Assembly: GCA_016778465.1 (NCBI GenBank)
Contig: JADHPM010000001.1
Coordinates: forward strand, 1-64,000
Reading direction: 5' to 3'
Length of the DNA: 64,000 nucleotides
From: Methylophilaceae bacterium
Lineage (GTDB): Bacteria; Pseudomonadota; Gammaproteobacteria; Burkholderiales; Methylophilaceae
Part shown: positions 12,697 through 22,291 of the stretch, piece after piece
How positions within the stretch are numbered: the stretch's first letter is position 1
Layout of the letters: every line of letters begins with the position of its first letter
Notes under the pieces: generated by a model
Databases searched by the model: none
What the model was told of the DNA's origin: nothing
What the model saw: only the letters and a program-made list of their open reading frames with translations
Made by a program: the position numbers and the translations under genes

Positions 12697-12987
12697 ATGT
12701 TGAAAAAGCACCTCTTCCAAATCTTTATTGTTTTCAGCCTGCTCTTTAATGTGCAGGCCAGCCTTGCCCATGGCATAGAACATCATGATCATGATGTTCA
12801 TGATCATGACAGTGAGGTTTACCATGACTGTGAAGACTGTGTTTTAAAACAACAAGTCTTAAAATCAACATTAGTTCCGCAGTCATCTAACTTCAAATGT
12901 GCATTTGAAAATGAATTTTTTGATAATTATCAATCACGAATTTTATTTTCAGAAACATTTGTTGCCTATCAATCCCGAGCCCCTTAA
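12697..12987 (+). CDS. Secreted His-rich small protein, probably metal-binding
   Basis: A 96-residue protein with an N-terminal signal peptide (MLKKHLFQIFIVFSLLF... with cleavage after SLA near residue 24). A dense His/Asp/Glu stretch follows: HGIEHHDHDVHDHDSEVYHDCEDC. The His cluster plus the closing C-x2-C is a likely Zn(II) or other transition-metal site in the periplasm. It lies 49 nt upstream of a TonB-dependent receptor whose own loops are His-rich, and was probably transcribed with it. The arrangement recalls small His-rich proteins found beside ZnuD-like zinc receptors. No family name recognised. Confidence 0.72.
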   Translation: MLKKHLFQIFIVFSLLFNVQASLAHGIEHHDHDVHDHDSEVYHDCEDCVLKQQVLKSTLVPQSSNFKCAFENEFFDNYQSRILFSETFVAYQSRAP

Positions 12988-13036
12988 AACTTCCTAGATT
13001 TTTTTAATTTTTTTCTAATTTCTAGGAGATAGACCT

Positions 13037-15100
13037 GTGCGTAGAATTAATTATGTACTTGTCCTCCTTGCCTGCACAGCGCTGCAAGTCAAGGCGGATG
13101 AGTCAATATTTTTAAAGGAGCTGCCGGTAACAGCAAATCCTTTAGGTTTAAGTAATGATGAGATGGTTCACCCGATTCATATCATGCAAGGAGCAGAGCT
13201 TGAGAGAAACAAGAGCTCATCCTTGGGCGAGATGCTAGACAACATTCCCGGGGTAAATAATAGTGCTTGGGGCACTAGTATTGGGCGCCCTGTTATTCGT
13301 GGTATGGATAGAAACAGAATTAAGATTTTAAATAATGGCACAGAGCTAAGGGATGTATCAAATATGTCTGGAGATCATGGCGTCGGCTATGACAGCTTAG
13401 CATCGGAGCAAATTGAAATCATTAGAGGGCCGGAGTCAATAATTTATGGCGGCGGCGCAATTGGTGGTGTCATTAACGTTATTGACTATCGCATTCATCC
13501 GGAATTTGTAGAGGGCATTTTTGGAAAATATGATGCAAAGACTGGGGGTGCAAACAATGAAAACTCAGGGTCATTGTTGATTGATTATGGTGCTGATAAT
13601 TTGATGTTTCATGTCGATGTATATAAGCGTGACAGCAAAAATTTAAAGATTCCTGGTGCCTCGGTTTCTAAAAGACTAGCTGAGTCAGATGATGAAATCA
13701 GTCGAGATGAATATGGCAGGGATACTCTGCAAAACTCTTACAGTGAAACGGAAGGGGGCGCTTTAGGCGCAAGCTACTTTTTTCATAAGGGGCGAACGGG
13801 AATTTCGTTTGCAAGACATGAGCAAGAGTACGGCACTATCCTCGAGGATGAAGCTTATATTGATTTAGAGTCAAGCAATATTAAATATGAGCTTGAGTTG
13901 CAAGAACTCTCAAAGCTCATCAACCATTTCAAAGTTAAACTCAGTTATACGGATTACGAGCACAAGGAGATTGAGGATAATGCAACGGCCCTAGATTATT
14001 TTGATCAAGGCGGCGATGCTAAATTTGAGTTTGTACATTCAGCGTTTTCAAAATCTGGGGGGGTCGTTGGCGTGGATTTAAATTCATTTCGATTTTCACA
14101 AGAAAATGGCTCATTTGCACCCAATAGTCAAAGGAAGGGCGTTGCATTATATGCGATGGAGAGGTTTAATTTCGAAGGTCATGACCTCACCGTTGGGTTA
14201 AGGCATGACTACCATGATTATAATGCCAATTCCTTTACCAGTGATAACGGCTATGCCACACCTGAGGGAGCTGAGGGAGGGGATGAAACGGAGACAACTT
14301 TTGCTGAAACAGAAAAGACGTTCAATGTCACCAGTGCGTCAATCGGCTCCTCTTCACAAATTAGCCAGAACTGGAAACTGGGTTTTAGCCTCTCCCACAC
14401 TGAAAGAGCCCCGTCACATGATGAGTTATTTGTTTATGGCGAGCACCATGCGACTGAAATTATTGAGCAAGGCGATCGTTCCTTGAAAAGTGAGCGTTCG
14501 AACGCCATAGACCTGACCTTGGGCTGGGTAAGTGGGGACAATACATTTTCTATGACCCCCTATTACAAGGACTTTAATAGCTATATCGCATTATTGAATA
14601 CCGGTACGGTTCAATACCATGAACATGAGCACGAAGGTGAGGTGGAGTATGAGGCATTACCTGTTTACCGCCATCAAAACGTGCCAGCGGAGTTTTATGG
14701 TTTCGAATTCCAGGGCAATATCGACATCGCGAGTAATTATGGACTAAATTATTGGGGTGACTTTGTGCGAGCTAAAAATAAAGATGGGGGAAATTTACCC
14801 AGAATACCGCCCTTGACTCTCGGGACAGGTTTGTATTACCAATGGAACGCACTTAATGCTAATTTAGGATTGGTTCACGCCTTTAGCCAGAGCGACCTGG
14901 GACCTGAGGAACTCAAAACCGATGACTACACTGACCTATCCATGACGTTGAATTATGAGTTTGCCAATTCTAAAATTAATGCCTACGTTAAAGGTACAAA
15001 TCTTTTAGATGAGGAAATAAGGCTCCATACTTCGTTTCTAAAAGATAAGGTCTTGATGGGTGAACGGGCGTTTTCATTCGGCTTGTCAGGTTCTTTTTAA
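13037..15100 (+). CDS. TonB-dependent outer-membrane receptor, ZnuD-like
   Basis: The 687-residue protein has a short signal peptide (to about residue 20, ALQVKA), a TonB-box-like segment, a plug domain (SSSLGEMLDNIPGVNNSAWG, IRGMDRNRIKILNNG, EQIEIIRGPESIIYGGGAIGGVINVID) and a beta-barrel ending in GERAFSFGLSGSF with a terminal Phe. Two loops are rich in His and acidic residues (YHEHEHEGEVEYE near residue 530 and VYGEHHATEI). The plug and these loops resemble ZnuD, a zinc/heme receptor of Neisseria, so Zn(II) uptake is the best guess. The start codon is GTG at 13037 after AGGAGA. Energy would come from TonB/ExbBD, which are not in this window. Confidence 0.85.
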   Translation: MRRINYVLVLLACTALQVKADESIFLKELPVTANPLGLSNDEMVHPIHIMQGAELERNKSSSLGEMLDNIPGVNNSAWGTSIGRPVIRGMDRNRIKILNNGTELRDVSNMSGDHGVGYDSLASEQIEIIRGPESIIYGGGAIGGVINVIDYRIHPEFVEGIFGKYDAKTGGANNENSGSLLIDYGADNLMFHVDVYKRDSKNLKIPGASVSKRLAESDDEISRDEYGRDTLQNSYSETEGGALGASYFFHKGRTGISFARHEQEYGTILEDEAYIDLESSNIKYELELQELSKLINHFKVKLSYTDYEHKEIEDNATALDYFDQGGDAKFEFVHSAFSKSGGVVGVDLNSFRFSQENGSFAPNSQRKGVALYAMERFNFEGHDLTVGLRHDYHDYNANSFTSDNGYATPEGAEGGDETETTFAETEKTFNVTSASIGSSSQISQNWKLGFSLSHTERAPSHDELFVYGEHHATEIIEQGDRSLKSERSNAIDLTLGWVSGDNTFSMTPYYKDFNSYIALLNTGTVQYHEHEHEGEVEYEALPVYRHQNVPAEFYGFEFQGNIDIASNYGLNYWGDFVRAKNKDGGNLPRIPPLTLGTGLYYQWNALNANLGLVHAFSQSDLGPEELKTDDYTDLSMTLNYEFANSKINAYVKGTNLLDEEIRLHTSFLKDKVLMGERAFSFGLSGSF

Positions 15101-15108
15101 GGCTTATA

Positions 15109-15366
15109 ATGAAGGCTATGAAAATTTTTTTATGCATAGCCTTTGTTTTTTTATCGCTAAATCTTCCTGCAAACGAAACAGATGAATTAAGGGCAAAAAA
15201 GTCCATTACGGAAGAGGTTTCTAAGCAGGAGTATAGCGAGCGACAAATCAATCAATTCCAACAGCTCGAGCAATATGAGAGTTACAGGCCATACTCATAC
15301 AGTGATGTGAACAGAAATCCTTTAAACAACACGCCCAAACGCTACAAATTTGAAGTGACTGATTAG
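15109..15366 (+). CDS. Small secreted hypothetical protein (85 aa)
   Basis: Not recognised. A signal peptide is clear (KIFLCIAFVFLSLNLPANE, cleavage near residue 20). The mature part is about 65 residues, polar and charged, with a Gln/Tyr/Ser-rich middle (RQINQFQQLEQYESYRPYSYSD). Starts at 15109 or 15118 (both ATG) are possible. It begins 8 nt after the TonB receptor stop, so is probably in the same transcript and may be a periplasmic helper of the receptor; this is inference from position only. It converges with the SYLF gene (1 nt between stops). Confidence 0.65.
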   Translation: MKAMKIFLCIAFVFLSLNLPANETDELRAKKSITEEVSKQEYSERQINQFQQLEQYESYRPYSYSDVNRNPLNNTPKRYKFEVTD

Positions 15367-15367
15367 T

Positions 15368-15910
15368 TTATTTTGGTGTATCGATTTTATTCAATTTTTT
15401 ACCTTCGAGCGTCAGGTTGTACATGAGTCCCTTAGGTGAAAAAACAAAAGCGACGACTGGATCCTCTATCGTGTCCGTGTTGACTTCGCCACCTGCTCCC
15501 CAAACTGCAATCGCAACACTTGCGTCACCACCACCTGACCAGCCGCTAGATTCTCTGAATTTCGTTAATGCCGCGCCATCAAGGAAAAGGTAAACCTCGG
15601 ATCTTTTTTCAACACCTATTTGAAAACCAATACTCCCTGCCATGTTGTTATAGTATTGGACTTTTTTGCCACCAATAATGAGAGCACCTTCACCATAGGC
15701 GCCACCAAAGACAAGCCCCGCTTTTACGATACTGGGGAAGACCAATATACCCTTTGCCCTCTTAGATAACTCTTTTGCAGCAGGGGTGTTTGCATAAAGT
15801 TCATCTAGGGCCACTTTAATCTCTGCATCCAACTCAGCTTTTGAAGCTGCAAAAGCTAGGTTAGAAAATAACATAAAAAATACAGCGGTTAGGGTGTTAA
15901 AAAGCCTCAT
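15368..15910 (-). CDS. SYLF/YSC84 lipid-binding domain protein, secreted
   Basis: After a signal peptide (MRLFNTLTAVFFMLFSNLAFA) the protein consists of one SYLF (Ysc84-type) domain: AKGILVFPSIVKAGLVFGGAYGEGALI, YYNNMAGSIGFQIGVEKRSEVYLF and VWGAGGEVNTDTIEDPVVAFVFSPKGLMYN. SYLF domains bind phosphoinositides in eukaryotes; the bacterial role is unclear, but periplasmic or outer-membrane association is likely. ATG at 15910 is chosen over one at 15943 because it gives a clean signal peptide and has AAAGGA upstream. Its 5' end faces the Fur boxes 78 nt away, so it could share that control. Confidence 0.85.
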   Translation of the reverse strand: MRLFNTLTAVFFMLFSNLAFAASKAELDAEIKVALDELYANTPAAKELSKRAKGILVFPSIVKAGLVFGGAYGEGALIIGGKKVQYYNNMAGSIGFQIGVEKRSEVYLFLDGAALTKFRESSGWSGGGDASVAIAVWGAGGEVNTDTIEDPVVAFVFSPKGLMYNLTLEGKKLNKIDTPK

Positions 15911-15987
15911 CTGAAAATCCTTTTTTTTGATTACTCCCATCATCGTAATAAAAATTCATAAGATTGTCAAAAAGAAACCCCTCTTGA

Positions 15988-16006
15988 AATGAGAATGATT
16001 CTCATT
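15988..16006. promoter_or_regulatory. Fur box 1
   Basis: AATGAGAATGATTCTCATT is a 19-bp 9-1-9 inverted repeat close to the Fur consensus (GATAATGATAATCATTATC). It lies between the SYLF gene and the porin operon. Its centre is 23 bp from that of box 2, about two helical turns, the spacing expected for cooperative Fur dimers. Confidence 0.85.
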
Positions 16007-16010
16007 TATA

Positions 16011-16029
16011 ATTGAGAATGATTCTCATT
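16011..16029. promoter_or_regulatory. Fur box 2, overlapping the porin promoter
   Basis: ATTGAGAATGATTCTCATT is a second 19-bp inverted repeat that shares TGAGAATGATTCTCATT with box 1. It covers the -35 and spacer of the promoter of the downstream operon. Bound Fur-Fe(II) here would block RNA polymerase, so the operon should be induced by iron limitation. Confidence 0.87.
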
Positions 16030-16041
16030 TACAATTATAAA
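16012..16041 (+). promoter_or_regulatory. Promoter of the porin operon
   Basis: TTGAGA at 16012-16017 and TATAAA at 16036-16041 are 18 bp apart (or TTATAA at 16035 with 17 bp). A strong ribosome binding site AGGAG follows at 16044-16048, 9 nt before the ATG at 16058. Confidence 0.6.
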
Positions 16042-16057
16042 TTAGGAGACAAGAAAA

Positions 16058-17275
16058 ATGAAACTTAAAAAATCCACGCCCTTGTTTCTATTGTTGGCTG
16101 GTTTTGCATTAAATACTCACGCTAATGCCCCAACAAACGAGGAGATTTACCAGATGATGTTGGAGTTAAAAAAAGAAATTGCCTCTCTAAGGGCGGAAAA
16201 CCAAAAGCTCAAAGAGTCTGTAGAGGTTGTCGAGGAATCCGTGGATGAGGTGGTTATTGCAACCGATGAGGCAATCAAAGAACAGGAAAAAATTGCAAGC
16301 CGCACAACGTTTGGAGGTTATGGAGAGCTGCATGGCAATTGGTTAAACGATCGGAATGGCAACGCGGACGTAGATGAATTAGATTTTCATCGGTTTGTGC
16401 TTTACTTTAATCATGAGTTTACAGATCGACTAAGGTTTTTTTCTGAGGTAGAGCTCGAGCACAGCGTTGCGGGGGAGGATCAAGTGGGTGAATTTGAGCT
16501 TGAGCAGGCATATGTCCAGTATGACTTGAACAATAAATATTCTCTCTCGGGCGGGGTTTTTCTAATGCCGGTGGGTATTCTTAATGAGACCCATGAGCCA
16601 GCCACCTTTTATGGGGTTGAGCGAAATAATGTGGAAAGTAAAATTGTGCCAACGACCTGGTGGGAGGGTGGCGCCATGCTATCTGGTAAATATGATAACG
16701 GCATGAGTGTCGATTTTGCCGTATCTTCAGGCCTTAAAGCAACTGTTGATAGTAATTATGCGCCAAGGAGTGCGCGCCAAAAAGTTGGCGAAGCAACTGC
16801 TAAAAGCCCATCAATTACCGGGCGTATGAAATATACTGGGTTGCCGGGTATTGAGTTGGCAGCATCGATTAATCATCAGGTCGATTACAGCCAAGACTCA
16901 TTAAGTAATGTGGACGACGCAACATTATTCGAACTTCATACGATTATCCAAAAAGGCAATTATGGTTTAAGGGCTATGTATGCCATGTGGGATATTAATG
17001 GTAGTGGCCCAAAATCGATTGGCGCTGATGAGCAATTTGGCTGGTATATCGAGCCATCTTATCGTATTAATGACGTGGGATTTTTCACACGCTATAGCCT
17101 TTATGATAATTTAGCAAACAGCAACAGTGATACGGAAATCAAGCAATGGGATATAGGGATTAATTGGTGGCTTCATAAAGATGTTGTCGTCAAACTTGAC
17201 TATCAAAACCAATCTGCGCCGTCGAGCATGGCTGAGTTAGATGGCATTAATGCTGGTCTTGGCTACTCTTTTTAG
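16058..17275 (+). CDS. Outer-membrane porin-like protein with coiled-coil, Fur-controlled
   Basis: The 405-residue protein has a signal peptide (to about residue 23, NTHANA), an N-terminal coiled coil with heptads (YQMMLELKKEIASLRAENQKL, residues about 29-72), and a beta-barrel beginning TTFGGYGELHGNW and ending in GINAGLGYSF with a terminal Phe. The overall shape is like trimeric porins of the DcaP or phosphate-selective porin type. The substrate is unknown; tandem Fur boxes immediately upstream point to iron. It is followed after 9 nt by an FMN-binding protein and a PepSY-type membrane protein. Confidence 0.8.
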   Translation: MKLKKSTPLFLLLAGFALNTHANAPTNEEIYQMMLELKKEIASLRAENQKLKESVEVVEESVDEVVIATDEAIKEQEKIASRTTFGGYGELHGNWLNDRNGNADVDELDFHRFVLYFNHEFTDRLRFFSEVELEHSVAGEDQVGEFELEQAYVQYDLNNKYSLSGGVFLMPVGILNETHEPATFYGVERNNVESKIVPTTWWEGGAMLSGKYDNGMSVDFAVSSGLKATVDSNYAPRSARQKVGEATAKSPSITGRMKYTGLPGIELAASINHQVDYSQDSLSNVDDATLFELHTIIQKGNYGLRAMYAMWDINGSGPKSIGADEQFGWYIEPSYRINDVGFFTRYSLYDNLANSNSDTEIKQWDIGINWWLHKDVVVKLDYQNQSAPSSMAELDGINAGLGYSF

Positions 17276-17284
17276 AGCTTGAGT

Positions 17285-17794
17285 ATGAAAAAAATCTTTT
17301 TAGCTTTACTGCTCCTTTTTTCGATGTCCATGGCACAGGCAAAAGGAGTCTACAAAACTGAAGAAAAGTTTTTAAATGACGTCTTTAATCAAAATGTTCC
17401 TGCAAGTGAGTCGCTCCTTTTAAAGAGCGAGCTTCGTGCCTCGGTGACGAAAATTTTAGGTCATCGTTATTCGGGTCTTAGAATTAAGTACTGGAAAAAT
17501 GAAAGTACTAGCGCATGGATATTGGAGGAAATTGGCAAAGATGAATTAATTACTTTCGGTTTTGCCATCAAAGAGAAAAAGATCAGCCAAGCAGAAGTCT
17601 TAATTTTTCGTGAGACTCGAGGGTGGGAAATTAAATACCCGGCCTTTACAACCCAATTCATTGGTGGACAACTGTCAAATAACGAGCTCACGCAAAACAT
17701 CGACGGTGTTACAGGAGCCACACTTTCAGTATGGGCGATGACCTCTGTTGCGAAATTAGCCTTATTTTTAGATGCATACGTAAATAAGCAATAA
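17285..17794 (+). CDS. Periplasmic FMN-binding domain protein (ApbE-flavinylated type)
   Basis: After a signal peptide (MKKIFLALLLLFSMSMAQA) this 169-residue protein has an FMN-binding domain ending in DGVTGATLSVWAMTS. The D-x2-TGAT motif is the recognised site at which ApbE attaches FMN to the last Thr, here about residue 146, as in NqrC and RnfG. It would therefore be an extracytoplasmic electron carrier. ATG at 17285 is chosen; an in-frame TTG lies 6 nt upstream. Its stop overlaps the ATG of the next gene by one base (TAATG), which implies translational coupling. No apbE is present in the window. Confidence 0.87.
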   Translation: MKKIFLALLLLFSMSMAQAKGVYKTEEKFLNDVFNQNVPASESLLLKSELRASVTKILGHRYSGLRIKYWKNESTSAWILEEIGKDELITFGFAIKEKKISQAEVLIFRETRGWEIKYPAFTTQFIGGQLSNNELTQNIDGVTGATLSVWAMTSVAKLALFLDAYVNKQ

Positions 17795-18519
17795 TGAGAC
17801 GGAATACTAAAATCATTAATTTGCACCGTAAAATCGGTATTTTGATTTGTGCCTTTTTAGTTCTCCTGTCAGTGACAGGGATTTTTTTAAATCACAGTGA
17901 TGATTTGAGTTTGAATAAGCATTATCTCAATTGGCCATGGTTGTTGAAACATTATGGCCTCGAGGCACCAGAGCCAAAACAAAATTTTAACTTAGGGTCA
18001 AACTCAGTGACCAATGTTGATGGTCAAATATTCTATAATGAAGTAAAGCTCTTTCAGACGAGTGATGAAATTAAAGGGGCAATTTTAAAAAATAATTATT
18101 TGTATATTGCATTATCTGATGAGATTATGATCTTCGATGACGCAATGGAAATTGTTATGTCCTTAGTGAATATGCCAGCCACAGTTGAACTGATTGGAAC
18201 CAATCCAGATGATGAACAAATCAGGTTTCTTGATAGTAATTATCAGAGCTGGACTTATAATGCAGCAGATAGTGAATGGATATCTGACTCTACAAAGATT
18301 CATGATTGGAGCCAATTAGAGCCTATGTCCTCAAGCCAAAGACAACGTATGCAGGATTATTTTCTAAGTAAAGGTGTCACGTTAGAGCAATTCTTGCTTG
18401 ACCTCCACAATGGCGCTATTTTTAAGAAAATTGGGAAATACCTGTTAGATGCCATTGGCGTATTAACTTTCCTCTTATCGATTACAGGTATTTTGATGTG
18501 GGGTATCCGAAAACGTTAA
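17794..18519 (+). CDS. PepSY-associated transmembrane protein
   Basis: The 241-residue protein has an N-terminal membrane helix (LHRKIGILICAFLVLLSVTGIFLNHSDDLSL), a periplasmic domain of about 150 residues, and a C-terminal helix (LLDAIGVLTFLLSITGILMWG). LH-x-G-type histidines lie near both helices (NLHRKIG; LDLHNGAIF), as in PepSY-TM proteins linked to ferric or siderophore reduction. It is the last gene of the Fur-controlled operon. I infer that it passes electrons across the inner membrane to the neighbouring flavoprotein; heme binding by the conserved His residues is possible but not shown. Confidence 0.8.
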   Translation: MRRNTKIINLHRKIGILICAFLVLLSVTGIFLNHSDDLSLNKHYLNWPWLLKHYGLEAPEPKQNFNLGSNSVTNVDGQIFYNEVKLFQTSDEIKGAILKNNYLYIALSDEIMIFDDAMEIVMSLVNMPATVELIGTNPDDEQIRFLDSNYQSWTYNAADSEWISDSTKIHDWSQLEPMSSSQRQRMQDYFLSKGVTLEQFLLDLHNGAIFKKIGKYLLDAIGVLTFLLSITGILMWGIRKR

Positions 18520-19877: not shown

Positions 19878-20813
19878 ATGAAAAAAATCATTATTACATT
19901 GTTCGCTTTGTTCACTTCATCCCTCCAAGCAACTGAGTTTGATCGTTATTGTACGACAAGTCTCGCCGACGGAAATTATAATAAGACAGATTGTTCTATT
20001 AAAACCACTTTTGATGGTAAAGAGTACTGTTTTGGCAATGAGGCAGCCTTGACTATTTTTACCGAAGATCCCAAAGCTGTTTTGGCAAAAGCAAGTAAAT
20101 TTTATGTAAAGAGCAACCAAGAGAGAGATAAAATTACTCAAGCTGCTGCTGATGAAATCTTAGAGGATCCTGATTGTGATTTTTCAAATAAGGATGTGGG
20201 TTATTTAGATTTCAACGGACGCGATCTTACGCATTGCATCATGGTAAATACAAGCTTTTTTGGAGCAGATTTACGAGGTGCAAATTTATCAGGGGCAAAT
20301 CTTCAGAGAGCTTATCTTAATTTGGCGCGACTCGAAAAGACCAATTTTTCAGGAGCGAATTTAAAGGAGGCAACCATCTTCCAACCCATTTTTGGGGAGA
20401 CTGTATTTCGCTCAGCAAACTTATCAGGCGCAAGACTCATAGGTACCCTTGGAAAAGTTAATATGTCTGGAGCGATTCTAACAGGAGGTCGGCTAGGTTT
20501 GGATGTGGGGAATCAGCCTATGGGGCAAATGAAATTTGATTCTTCCGGTGGAAATTTCGAGGGCGCTGATTTCGAGGGAGCTGATTTGAACATTGCTAGT
20601 TTTATTTTTGGAAATCTACAAGGTGCTAACTTAAGAAATACTAATCTTTATCGGGCAGAATTAATACAAGCTGATTTAACCGGTGCTGATTTAACCGGTG
20701 CTGATTTAACTGATGCAGAGGTAGATGGTGCGAACTTTGCGGCTGTCAAAGGTTTAGATACTGTGAAGGGATTTAATACAGTCAAAGGAAAGTGCAAGAG
20801 TTGTGGCCAATAA
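19878..20813 (+). CDS. Secreted pentapeptide-repeat protein with N-terminal YHS-like domain
   Basis: The 311-residue protein has a signal peptide (MKKIIITLFALFTSSLQATE). A YHS-like, possibly metal-binding, segment follows (DRYCTTSLADG to about residue 75, with FDGKEYCFGNEAAL). From about residue 105 it is a run of A(D/N)LxG pentapeptides (GADLRGANLSGANLQ and later GADLTGADLTDAEVDG), which would form a right-handed quadrilateral beta helix. The end, GKCKSCGQ, has a C-x2-C. Its stop lies inside msrP (11-nt overlap), so it is the first gene of an msrPQ operon. Its role there is unknown. Confidence 0.8.
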   Translation: MKKIIITLFALFTSSLQATEFDRYCTTSLADGNYNKTDCSIKTTFDGKEYCFGNEAALTIFTEDPKAVLAKASKFYVKSNQERDKITQAAADEILEDPDCDFSNKDVGYLDFNGRDLTHCIMVNTSFFGADLRGANLSGANLQRAYLNLARLEKTNFSGANLKEATIFQPIFGETVFRSANLSGARLIGTLGKVNMSGAILTGGRLGLDVGNQPMGQMKFDSSGGNFEGADFEGADLNIASFIFGNLQGANLRNTNLYRAELIQADLTGADLTGADLTDAEVDGANFAAVKGLDTVKGFNTVKGKCKSCGQ

Positions 20814-21732
20814 AAAAATATTAGCCTCTGAAATAACTGCAGAAAAAATTTATTATGACCGCCGTAATTTTTTAAAAAAAATAGGCTTTGCTTCTGCTGC
20901 GATTGGGTTTTCTCCCCTTTTGTCTTTTGCCAATATGAGCCAAGCAAAAAAAATACCCCACGACATTAAAGATAGCTTAACAAGTTTCAAAGATGTCACT
21001 TCCTATAATAATTTCTATGAATTTGGCTTACAAAAATCTTCTCCAAAAGCCCATGCTCATAAGATGAAAATTGATCCATGGTCAGTAGATATTTCCGGCC
21101 ATATTGAAACAAATAAAACCTACGCCCTCGAGGACCTTGTTAAGCTGGCATCACTTGAAGAGCGAGTTTATCGTTTAAGATGTGTTGAGGGATGGTCGAT
21201 GGTTATCCCCTGGATAGGCTTTTCATTAAGTGTTCTTTTAAAAAAATTAGCCCTTACCAGTCGGGCTAAGTATATTATTTTTGAAACACTTTTTCGACCT
21301 GATGAAATGGAGGGGCAAAAATCCAGAGTATTAGATTGGCCTTATCTTGAAGCTTTGAGGATAGACGAGGCAATGCACCCCTTGACATTACTTTGTTTTG
21401 GCGTCTATGGAAAGGTATTGCCTAATCAGAATGGCGCCCCAGTGCGTCTTATTATTCCGTGGAAATATGGATTTAAGAGTATCAAATCAATTGTAAAGAT
21501 TAAATTTGTTGAGTCTATGCCAAAAACAACTTGGGCATTATCTAATCCAAATGAATATGGCTTTTATGCTAATGTTAATCCTAATGTTGATCATCCCCGT
21601 TGGACTCAAGCAACAGAGCGACGTATCGGTGACTCGATTCTTGCCAAGCGGCGTAAAACTGAGTTTCTAAATGGATACGCTGAGGAAGTAGGCTATCTCT
21701 ATTCGGGGTTAGATCTGAAAAAAAATTTCTGA
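20803..21732 (+). CDS. msrP: Protein-methionine-sulfoxide reductase catalytic subunit MsrP
   Basis: MsrP is a periplasmic molybdopterin enzyme that reduces methionine sulfoxide in proteins. A twin-arginine signal is visible (DRRNFLKKIGFASAAIGF), then the family core YNNFYEFGLQK, RLRCVEGWSMVIPWIGF with the Mo-ligand Cys, and PNQNGAPVRLIIPWKYGFK. Length 309 is normal. The start is GTG at 20803; no other start precedes the Tat signal. It overlaps the pentapeptide gene and is followed after 4 nt by msrQ. Its cofactor would come from the moa/mob/moe genes at 40666-43985. Confidence 0.94.
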   Translation: MANKKILASEITAEKIYYDRRNFLKKIGFASAAIGFSPLLSFANMSQAKKIPHDIKDSLTSFKDVTSYNNFYEFGLQKSSPKAHAHKMKIDPWSVDISGHIETNKTYALEDLVKLASLEERVYRLRCVEGWSMVIPWIGFSLSVLLKKLALTSRAKYIIFETLFRPDEMEGQKSRVLDWPYLEALRIDEAMHPLTLLCFGVYGKVLPNQNGAPVRLIIPWKYGFKSIKSIVKIKFVESMPKTTWALSNPNEYGFYANVNPNVDHPRWTQATERRIGDSILAKRRKTEFLNGYAEEVGYLYSGLDLKKNF

Positions 21733-21736
21733 TTCA

Positions 21737-22291
21737 ATGAAATTATTTCTTTTTTACAATTTTTGTAATGCGCCAATTTATTTCATCTTAGCAATCTTAT
21801 TCGGTATTTATTATGTCACCAACCCAATTGATTATTTATTATCAATTACGGGTCATGCAGCAATTATTCTATTAATCATTTTACTTCTCATTCCACATAT
21901 TTTTTTTCGGCTACAAATAAATTTATTTTTCTATCGACGGCCGATTGGATTATATGTCTTTCTTTATTCGTTTTTGCACACCTTAATTTTTTTTGCTCTT
22001 GATTATCAGTTTGCATGGCCTAGTATCTTGCATGAAATTAAATTACATTTATATTTGCAACTGGGCCTTCTTGCGCTTATTTTTCTTCTACCTTTGGTGA
22101 TTACCTCCAATGACTATGCCAAGAAGCTCTTATCTGATTGGTGGGGAAAGCTTCATAAGCTCATTTATTTGGTTATCATTTTCACCTTGTTACATTATTA
22201 TTTTTTAATTAAATTAGATTTTAATTTTTTAATAATGTACATCGTTTTATTTTTAATCCTGTTTATTGTACCCAAAAAAAACGCCCAATAA
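21737..22291 (+). CDS. msrQ: Heme-binding subunit MsrQ
   Basis: MsrQ is an inner-membrane b-type heme protein that delivers electrons from the quinone pool to MsrP. The 184 residues form about five or six hydrophobic helices. Conserved His positions are seen in SITGHAAIILLI, SFLHTLIFFALDY and WGKLHKLIYLVIIFTLLHYY. The gene order msrP-msrQ and the 4-nt spacing support the call. It ends at a bidirectional terminator shared with hupB. Confidence 0.92.
   Translation: MKLFLFYNFCNAPIYFILAILFGIYYVTNPIDYLLSITGHAAIILLIILLLIPHIFFRLQINLFFYRRPIGLYVFLYSFLHTLIFFALDYQFAWPSILHEIKLHLYLQLGLLALIFLLPLVITSNDYAKKLLSDWWGKLHKLIYLVIIFTLLHYYFLIKLDFNFLIMYIVLFLILFIVPKKNAQ

What the first reader, a model, noticed from the sequence alone, without database searches (positions are those of the whole stretch)
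15988..18519. Tandem Fur boxes control a porin / FMN-binding / PepSY-TM operon: a candidate iron-reduction system
Two 19-bp palindromes very close to the Fur consensus lie 23 bp apart and cover the promoter. The three genes behind them encode an outer-membrane porin-like barrel, a periplasmic protein with the ApbE flavinylation motif DGVTGAT, and a PepSY-TM protein, linked by short spacing and a TAATG overlap. Covalently flavinylated periplasmic proteins and PepSY-TM proteins are known redox modules. The combination suggests transfer of electrons across the envelope for ferric-iron reduction with a dedicated porin, not a siderophore receptor route. The exact function of the set is not known to me.
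Basis: partly seen in the sequence, partly recalled or inferred. Interest (0 to 1): 0.7.

Follow-up and report, generated by a model that had tools for sequence, protein, structure and literature searches.

The report
Porin-fed flavin/heme iron-reduction operon
A tiny methylotroph genome carries three genes under iron-switch (Fur) boxes, for an outer-membrane pore, a flavin-carrying protein and a membrane electron carrier, that most likely reduce iron in the cell envelope for uptake, in the place where sister species carry a siderophore receptor.

Summary
A consensus-like promoter (TTGAAA-17-TATAAT) is covered by two perfect Fur boxes before porin, FMN-binding and PepSY_TM genes. Three perfect boxes were found in the 1.24-Mb genome; the third precedes feoAB. 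In 31 genus genomes, 36 of 41 perfect boxes lie before this operon, feoAB, a siderophore-type receptor or an EfeU/FTR1 permease. Of 80 related loci 75 have all three genes; four genus members lack PepSY there, one locus is cut by a contig end. Fur-like boxes precede the porin in 34 of 74 loci, against 5 of 336 flanking genes. In the genus the operon (16 of 31) and one siderophore-type receptor (9 of 31) never co-occur, with at least two switches; other TonB receptors were not searched. Models give a 16-strand OprP-like porin and a two-helix protein, related to FoxB by profile, with a propeller-like periplasmic part. Likely function: Fur-repressed reductive iron acquisition, quinol to heme protein to flavinylated protein to Fe(III), then Feo or EfeU. 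Chemistry and substrate are inferred. PepSY-type flavinylated iron reductases are already proposed in print; I did not find this composition. New variant of a known kind.

The parts
15984..16012 (+). sigma-70 type promoter match, TTGAAA-17-TATAAT
   Evidence: 11 of 12 consensus positions
15988..16006 (.). Fur box 1 (19-bp palindrome) filling the -35/-10 spacer
16011..16029 (.). Fur box 2, from the end of the -10 element over the likely start site
16058..17275 (+). OprP/OprO-like porin: signal peptide (by eye), helices 27-80 of low confidence (coiled-coil-like), 16 strands 83-404
17285..17794 (+). FMN-binding-domain protein with signal peptide (by eye), predicted ApbE substrate
17702..17722 (+). 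flavinylation motif DGVTGAT; Thr146 codon 17720-17722
   Evidence: Thr146 identical in all 81 rows
17794..18519 (+). two-helix PepSY_TM-type protein with a 12-strand, propeller-like periplasmic part; conserved His11, His34, His205

Best explanation
A Fur-repressed, reductive iron-acquisition module of the cell envelope. When iron is short, Fur leaves the two boxes and the operon is made. The porin lets iron ions or small iron chelates into the periplasm. The two-helix membrane protein, probably a homodimer that rebuilds the four-helix, two-heme core of FoxB, takes electrons from the quinol pool and passes them to the periplasmic protein carrying FMN on Thr146, put there by the genome's ApbE. 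The reduced flavin turns Fe(III) into Fe(II), which FeoAB (here) or an EfeU/FTR1 permease (in sister species) imports. Shown: promoter and box architecture, the same box before feoAB, gene conservation, motif and histidine conservation, predicted folds. Inferred: Fur binding, heme and FMN loading, dimer, electron path and donor, Fe(III) as substrate.
For: Three perfect boxes in the genome: two here, one before feoAB. 41 perfect boxes in 31 genus genomes: 16 before this operon, 5 before feoAB, 13 at a siderophore-type receptor, 2 before EfeU/FTR1, 5 at other genes. Fur-like box (at most 1 mismatch) before the porin in 34 of 74 loci, against 5 of 336 flanking genes and 22 of 1475 windows. Trio complete in 75 of 80 loci, median gaps 32 and -4 bp by mechanical ORF starts. 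Iron neighbours: an iron-binding-protein gene (one member tested) downstream in 7 of 80 loci, 72-80 bp after PepSY in 5; bacterioferritin-type genes nearby in 7 of 80 (one member tested). FTR1 is in 7 of 31 genus genomes, all 7 with the operon. Operon and the receptor exclude each other (0 of 31 with both). Profile of the membrane protein finds only FoxB 7abw (9.1e-6). ApbE in 31 of 31 genus genomes.
Against: No biochemical or expression data. Four genus genomes with porin-FMN have no PepSY gene next to it (L031, L034-L036; the same four are L075, L077, L078, L085). FeoB is also in all 9 receptor genomes, so FeoB alone does not point to this reductase. The exclusion rests on at least 2 switches only and the labels are strongly clustered on the tree. 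TonB receptors other than homologues of P0001 were not searched, and the window itself holds a ZnuD-like one upstream of the operon. 40 of 74 loci have no box within 1 mismatch. ApbE is not in the cluster. In the FoxB match only the last helix is significant on its own (i-E 1.7e-4; first helix 7.6), and FoxB is not among the 50 structural matches listed.
Confidence: 0.6

Rival explanations
1. A ferrisiderophore reductase: siderophores or other iron chelates enter by the porin or an unlinked receptor and the module only strips iron from them, as FoxB, FhuB and HiuB are reported to do for hydroxamates.
For: FoxB-related profile match; FoxB-type proteins act in siderophore use and hiuABC is Fur-regulated (PMC12424826, PMC10866019, passages). 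The window has a TonB receptor of ZnuD-like type upstream.
Against: By eye, no TonB receptor among the 25 most recurrent neighbour families of the 80 loci (a capped list); in the genus the siderophore-type receptor P0001 and the operon never co-occur; the upstream ZnuD-like gene has no Fur-like box within 3 mismatches; the model shows no PepSY domains.
Confidence: 0.16
2. An outer-membrane electron conduit: the flavoprotein sits in or on the porin and reduces iron outside the cell, as porin-cytochrome complexes do.
For: Porin and FMN genes stay neighbours also where PepSY is missing; weak match to the porin ExtI of a selenite/tellurite reduction operon (E 0.0016, 17.3 bits against a cut-off of 150).
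Against: 16-strand OprP-like barrel, narrower than known conduits (recalled: MtrB has 26 strands); a single flavin motif; no multiheme gene in the trio.
Confidence: 0.08
3. Iron-sparing redox substitution: under iron shortage a flavoprotein replaces a cytochrome in a periplasmic electron route unrelated to iron uptake.
For: Fur control and flavin chemistry fit, by analogy with flavodoxin (recalled).
Against: The membrane partner is itself predicted to bind heme (conserved histidines); iron-binding-protein and bacterioferritin-type genes as neighbours in some loci and the exclusion of a siderophore-type receptor point to uptake.
Confidence: 0.1
4. Reduction of another metal, such as copper, as speculated for the PepSY_TM protein CrpH.
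For: CrpH is a PepSY_TM protein linked to copper (PMC13038864, passages).
Against: The same Fur box before feoAB and iron genes as neighbours; CrpH has at least four membrane helices.
Confidence: 0.04

Closest known systems
PepSY-like flavinylation gene clusters (Meheust et al. 2021, PMC8238504)
   Same: PepSY_TM-type membrane protein beside an ApbE-type flavinylation substrate; Fur repression cited for Shewanella oneidensis and Caulobacter crescentus; proposed iron reduction and assimilation (passages)
   Different: Those clusters frequently have ApbE, DUF2271 and DUF4198; here FMN_bind plus a porin and no ApbE in the trio. The word porin was not found in that main text; its supplement was not readable.
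FoxB / FhuB / HiuB ferrisiderophore reductases
   Same: membrane helices with conserved histidines; profile match to 7abw, 9.1e-6
   Different: Two helices instead of four, no PepSY domains in the model, porin neighbour instead of a TonB receptor; FoxB not among the 50 structural matches listed
S. oneidensis SO1188-1189-1190
   Same: Iron-responsive, potentially Fur-repressed operon of unknown function (PMC2667191, PMC2535785, PMC3127752, passages)
   Different: SO1190 is annotated there as a Co2+-transporter-like periplasmic component; homology to this trio was not tested
OprO/OprP porins
   Same: Pfam Porin_O_P over cut-off; best structural match OprP 2o4v, E 8.6e-15
   Different: 15-16% identity in that alignment; conserved acidic ladder E130/E132/E134 and E145/E147/E149
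OmpC-plus-Feo ferrous uptake in E. coli (PMC7315122, start of abstract in a listing)
   Same: a porin and Feo as one iron route
   Different: no reductase module is mentioned in what I saw

Membership tests
Fur-regulated operon | Fur boxes over the promoter and a Fur protein in the genome | tested here: met
   (Fur NF006999, 192.9 bits, cut-off 146)
Fur-regulated operon | Fur binds and represses; iron limitation induces | not testable with these tools
   needs gel shift or transcript data
PepSY-like flavinylation cluster | PF03929 or PF16357 protein beside an FMN-binding or ApbE gene | tested here: met
PepSY-like flavinylation cluster | ApbE, DUF2271 or DUF4198 in the cluster (frequent, not obligatory) | tested here: not met
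   the only ApbE match lies on contig C15; none of the window proteins scanned matched DUF2271 or DUF4198 (not every ORF around was scanned)
ApbE substrate | [S/T]GA[S/T] motif with invariant acceptor | tested here: met
ApbE substrate | FMN attached in vivo | not testable with these tools
   needs expression and mass spectrometry
FoxB-type reductase | conserved membrane histidines for heme | tested here: met
   H11 77/77, H34 76/77, H205 76/77 rows, the last exception an X; H11 and H205 fall on FoxB histidines, H34 lies one residue off a His pair; the H11 stretch is weak on its own
FoxB-type reductase | at least four helices and two periplasmic PepSY domains | tested here: not met
   two long helices, 12 strands; two hydropathy peaks
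Porin O/P | Pfam profile and 16-strand barrel | tested here: met
Porin O/P | phosphate-selective arginine ladder | tested here: inconclusive
   conserved acidic ladder found; the OprP ladder positions were not mapped
MtrCAB-type conduit | large barrel plus multiheme cytochrome | tested here: not met
   16 strands; no multiheme gene in the trio

The most novel reading that the evidence does not exclude
A complete iron uptake system that needs no siderophore receptor: a Fur-controlled porin (perhaps selective for iron, with an acidic ladder) feeds a covalent-flavin reductase driven by a minimal homodimeric di-heme cytochrome, half of FoxB, whose two three-bladed halves close into a six-bladed propeller that docks the flavoprotein. 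Streamlined methylotrophs have swapped it with siderophore receptors at least twice.
Probability: 0.35. Interest if true: 0.78.

Novelty: new variant of a known kind. Interest (0 to 1): 0.6.

Why it matters
How streamlined aquatic bacteria get iron with few transporters is open. A three-gene, Fur-switched reductive system that stands where sister species have a siderophore-type receptor, whose flavoprotein has at least 416 relatives in named genomes (the trio was checked in 80 of them), and that may use a minimal cytochrome, would give a testable answer and a marker to follow iron strategy in metagenomes.

Tried and rejected
Chance palindrome: rejected (0.0135 expected against 3 found; 0 control hits in 31 genomes). 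At 3 mismatches the pattern is weak (142 against 70 control in the genome; 7 against mean 3.67 in the window), so I used perfect and 1-mismatch sites, and give 2-mismatch counts as well.

Zur instead of Fur: one FUR-family match in the genome, and it scores as Fur.

MtrB-type conduit and FoxB membership: see rivals and membership test. Homology to SO1188-1190 was not tested. The FMN protein's profile found no solved structure at E up to 1, and no fold was predicted for it (both jobs went to the other two proteins). The structural matches of the half propeller are partial (TMq 0.28-0.37 in the 50 rows listed, 5 with E under 0.001); 6r5z, a 9-bladed propeller from 3-bladed fragments, is rank 39. 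The six-bladed dimer is my inference, not a result. Literature; two direct term sets gave 0 papers; supplements could not be read, so Supplementary file 1 of PMC8238504 may list such clusters. PMC3377617 and PMC13142918 (passages) describe other systems.
Full report
What is there. The window comes from a 1.24-Mb genome (99% complete, 21 contigs) whose closest relatives with record titles are mostly Methylophilaceae and OM43-clade records. Two perfect TGAGAATGATTCTCA boxes lie 23 bp apart on a TTGAAA-17-TATAAT promoter match: the first fills the spacer, the second follows the -10 element. Behind it come a porin, an FMN_bind protein with DGVTGAT, and a PepSY_TM-type membrane protein.

Regulon. 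The genome has three perfect boxes. The third is directly before a feoA-like ORF and feoB (feoA by eye). The one FUR-family match is Fur by NCBIfam. In the 31 genus genomes searched there are 41 perfect boxes, in 23 genomes, and no hit of the reversed control. I placed all 41: 16 before the operon; 5 before feoAB; 13 at a siderophore-type TonB receptor, where another gene runs the other way from the boxes (in G011 two of them at a 60-residue receptor start cut by the contig end); 2 before an EfeU/FTR1 permease; 4 at a 42-residue Cys-rich or 129-residue protein; 1 before an unknown 159-residue protein. So 36 of 41 stand at this operon or at iron transport genes. The receptor's best profiles are TIGR01783 (1.4e-58, 199 bits, cut-off 223.5, part-length query P0001) and catecholate or hydroxamate receptors.

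Conservation. A search of 101 genomes, the own one included, found the FMN protein in 31. In the 22 best places the porin is next to it in all 22 and the PepSY gene in 16. Of the other 6, L031 and L034-L036 (all in the genus) have a pseudouridine-synthase-like gene next (by eye); in L038 a cytochrome b561-like gene takes the third place (PF01292, over cut-off); in L042 the script listed no third gene. Weaker FMN relatives (L043-L050) have other arrangements, several with a barrel, an ApbE-like gene (by eye) and a small membrane protein with at best sub-threshold DUF4405 matches. Of these 80, 79 have a porin match (L087 starts at the contig end; L127 has only a fragment; several others are cut by contig ends) and 76 have PepSY (in L055 it is split over two frames); 75 have all three. 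The 80 include genus members already seen under G handles, so they are not independent.

Fur boxes in relatives. Six of the 80 were dropped (no porin, or under 120 bases upstream). Of 74, 34 have a box with at most one mismatch and 11 a perfect one; Markov shuffles gave 0.5% and 0%. Against real DNA: 5 of 336 upstream regions of flanking genes and 22 of 1475 other windows have at most one mismatch (Fisher 8e-24 and 2e-34, ignoring relatedness). Perfect: 11 of 74, 2 of 336, 4 of 1475. With two mismatches: 57 of 74, 48 of 336, 124 of 1475. 40 of 74 have none within one mismatch.

Iron neighbours. In 7 of 80 loci a gene of one solute-binding-protein family lies downstream on the same strand, 72-80 bp behind PepSY in 5; the member tested matches PDB iron-binding proteins (best named iron transport match 5.8e-83, best overall 4.3e-99), though NCBIfam gives only sub-threshold aminoethylphosphonate and thiamine names. 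A permease-like gene follows in 6. Bacterioferritin-type genes lie nearby in 7 of 80, in L127 downstream on the other strand and in L069 2.8 kb away (the member tested is TIGR00754).

Receptor swap. In the 31 genus genomes the operon is in 16, homologues of the receptor P0001 in 9 (E up to 1e-10), both in none, neither in 6 (all at most 84% complete). Among the 14 genomes at least 90% complete, 6 have the operon and 8 the receptor. Fisher p is 0.00025 for all and 0.00033 for the 14, but relatedness inflates this: an rpoB tree of 23 genomes (8 of the 31 lacked a usable rpoB) needs at least two changes, against 6.3-6.4 for shuffled labels, one of them G015 beside G013. Other TonB receptors were not searched, and the window holds a ZnuD-like one. 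Inner-membrane partners: of the 16 operon genomes 5 have FeoB and 7 FTR1, none both; the other 4 are 59-84% complete. FTR1 occurs only with the operon (7 of 7; Fisher 0.007). FeoB is in all 9 receptor genomes and in 1 with neither, so it is not specific to the operon.

The FMN protein. Asp140, Gly144, Ala145 and Thr146 are identical in all 81 rows, Gly141 in 99%. The genome's only ApbE match is at C15, beside genes that remind me of Rnf-associated ones (recalled, not family-tested); ApbE is in 31 of 31 genus genomes. The other FMN_bind match of the genome is RnfG.

The membrane protein. His11, His34 and His205 are near-invariant in 77 rows. A profile of 50 rows (the window and 49 of 76 relatives, A2) finds one PDB chain at E up to 1, FoxB (7abw, 9.1e-6). 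Only the stretch at FoxB 338-375 with our His205 is significant alone (i-E 1.7e-4); the stretch at FoxB 1-38 with our His11 scores 9.4 bits (i-E 7.6), and two inner stretches score -0.5 and 0.1. The pattern is what one half of FoxB's internal repeat would give, but it is weak support. The model (pLDDT 94, pTM 0.77) has long helices 3-33 and 208-240 and 12 strands between, which I read as three groups of four. Foldseek's listed matches are mostly kelch or WD40-type propellers (recalled), all partial; FoxB is not among the 50 listed. From this I infer a homodimer with a four-helix heme core and a closed six-blade propeller; this was not computed. PMC13038864 (passages) says that the proteins compared there have at least four helices; PMC8238504 speaks of three.

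The porin. A model from the window and 44 of 79 relatives (A4): pLDDT 82, helices 27-80 of low confidence, 16 strands; best match OprP 2o4v, E 8.6e-15, TMq 0.58; by sequence OprO at 5e-4. Conserved glutamates alternate on strands 3 and 4 (E130/132/134, E145/147/149), so they should face the lumen; over the whole protein 23 conserved acidic against 10 basic positions. A cation or iron preference is a guess from this. The architecture argues against an MtrB-like conduit.

Literature. PMC8238504 (passages) already proposes that PepSY-like flavinylated clusters reduce iron, and cites Fur repression in S. oneidensis and C. crescentus. PMC11334425 (passages) treats DUF4405 and PepSY cytochromes. No paper of the library holds the words FMN-binding, PepSY and porin together. 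So the kind is known as a proposal; this composition I did not find described.

Verdict. Observation confirmed, interpretation partly supported. Fur-regulated iron acquisition about 0.9; periplasmic Fe(III) reduction by flavin about 0.6; the homodimer-propeller detail about 0.4.

Noticed in passing
window 12697-15366: Histidine-rich small protein, a ZnuD-like TonB receptor (NF038289 267 bits, under its cut-off of 950) and an 85-residue protein: perhaps a zinc uptake set; only one FUR-family protein was found in the genome, and no Fur-like box within 3 mismatches lies before it.
   Followed up: partly
window 20803-22291: MsrP/MsrQ-like pair: molybdopterin oxidoreductase (PF00174) and a ferric-reductase-like membrane protein (PF01794).
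   Followed up: no
L140, L150, L184, L185 (box at 1501, 1501, 1516, 1550): In four genus genomes a perfect Fur box lies at a 42-residue Cys-rich protein (CGCGRSPNGKCLGW, seen in three) or a 129-residue protein (seen in three): unknown iron-regulated candidates.
   Followed up: partly
L144 1501-2037: Perfect Fur box before an unknown 159-residue protein.
   Followed up: no
L031, L034, L035, L036: Four genus genomes keep porin-FMN without an adjacent PepSY gene; each shows one single box with one mismatch.
   Followed up: partly
L043-L050: Distant FMN relatives pair with other barrels (DUF6662 in L048), often an ApbE-like gene and a small membrane protein: a possible sister module.
   Followed up: partly
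window 15368-15943 minus: Divergent SYLF/Ysc84-type ORF starts 41 bp from the -35 element; a similar neighbour is seen in L148 by eye.
   Followed up: no
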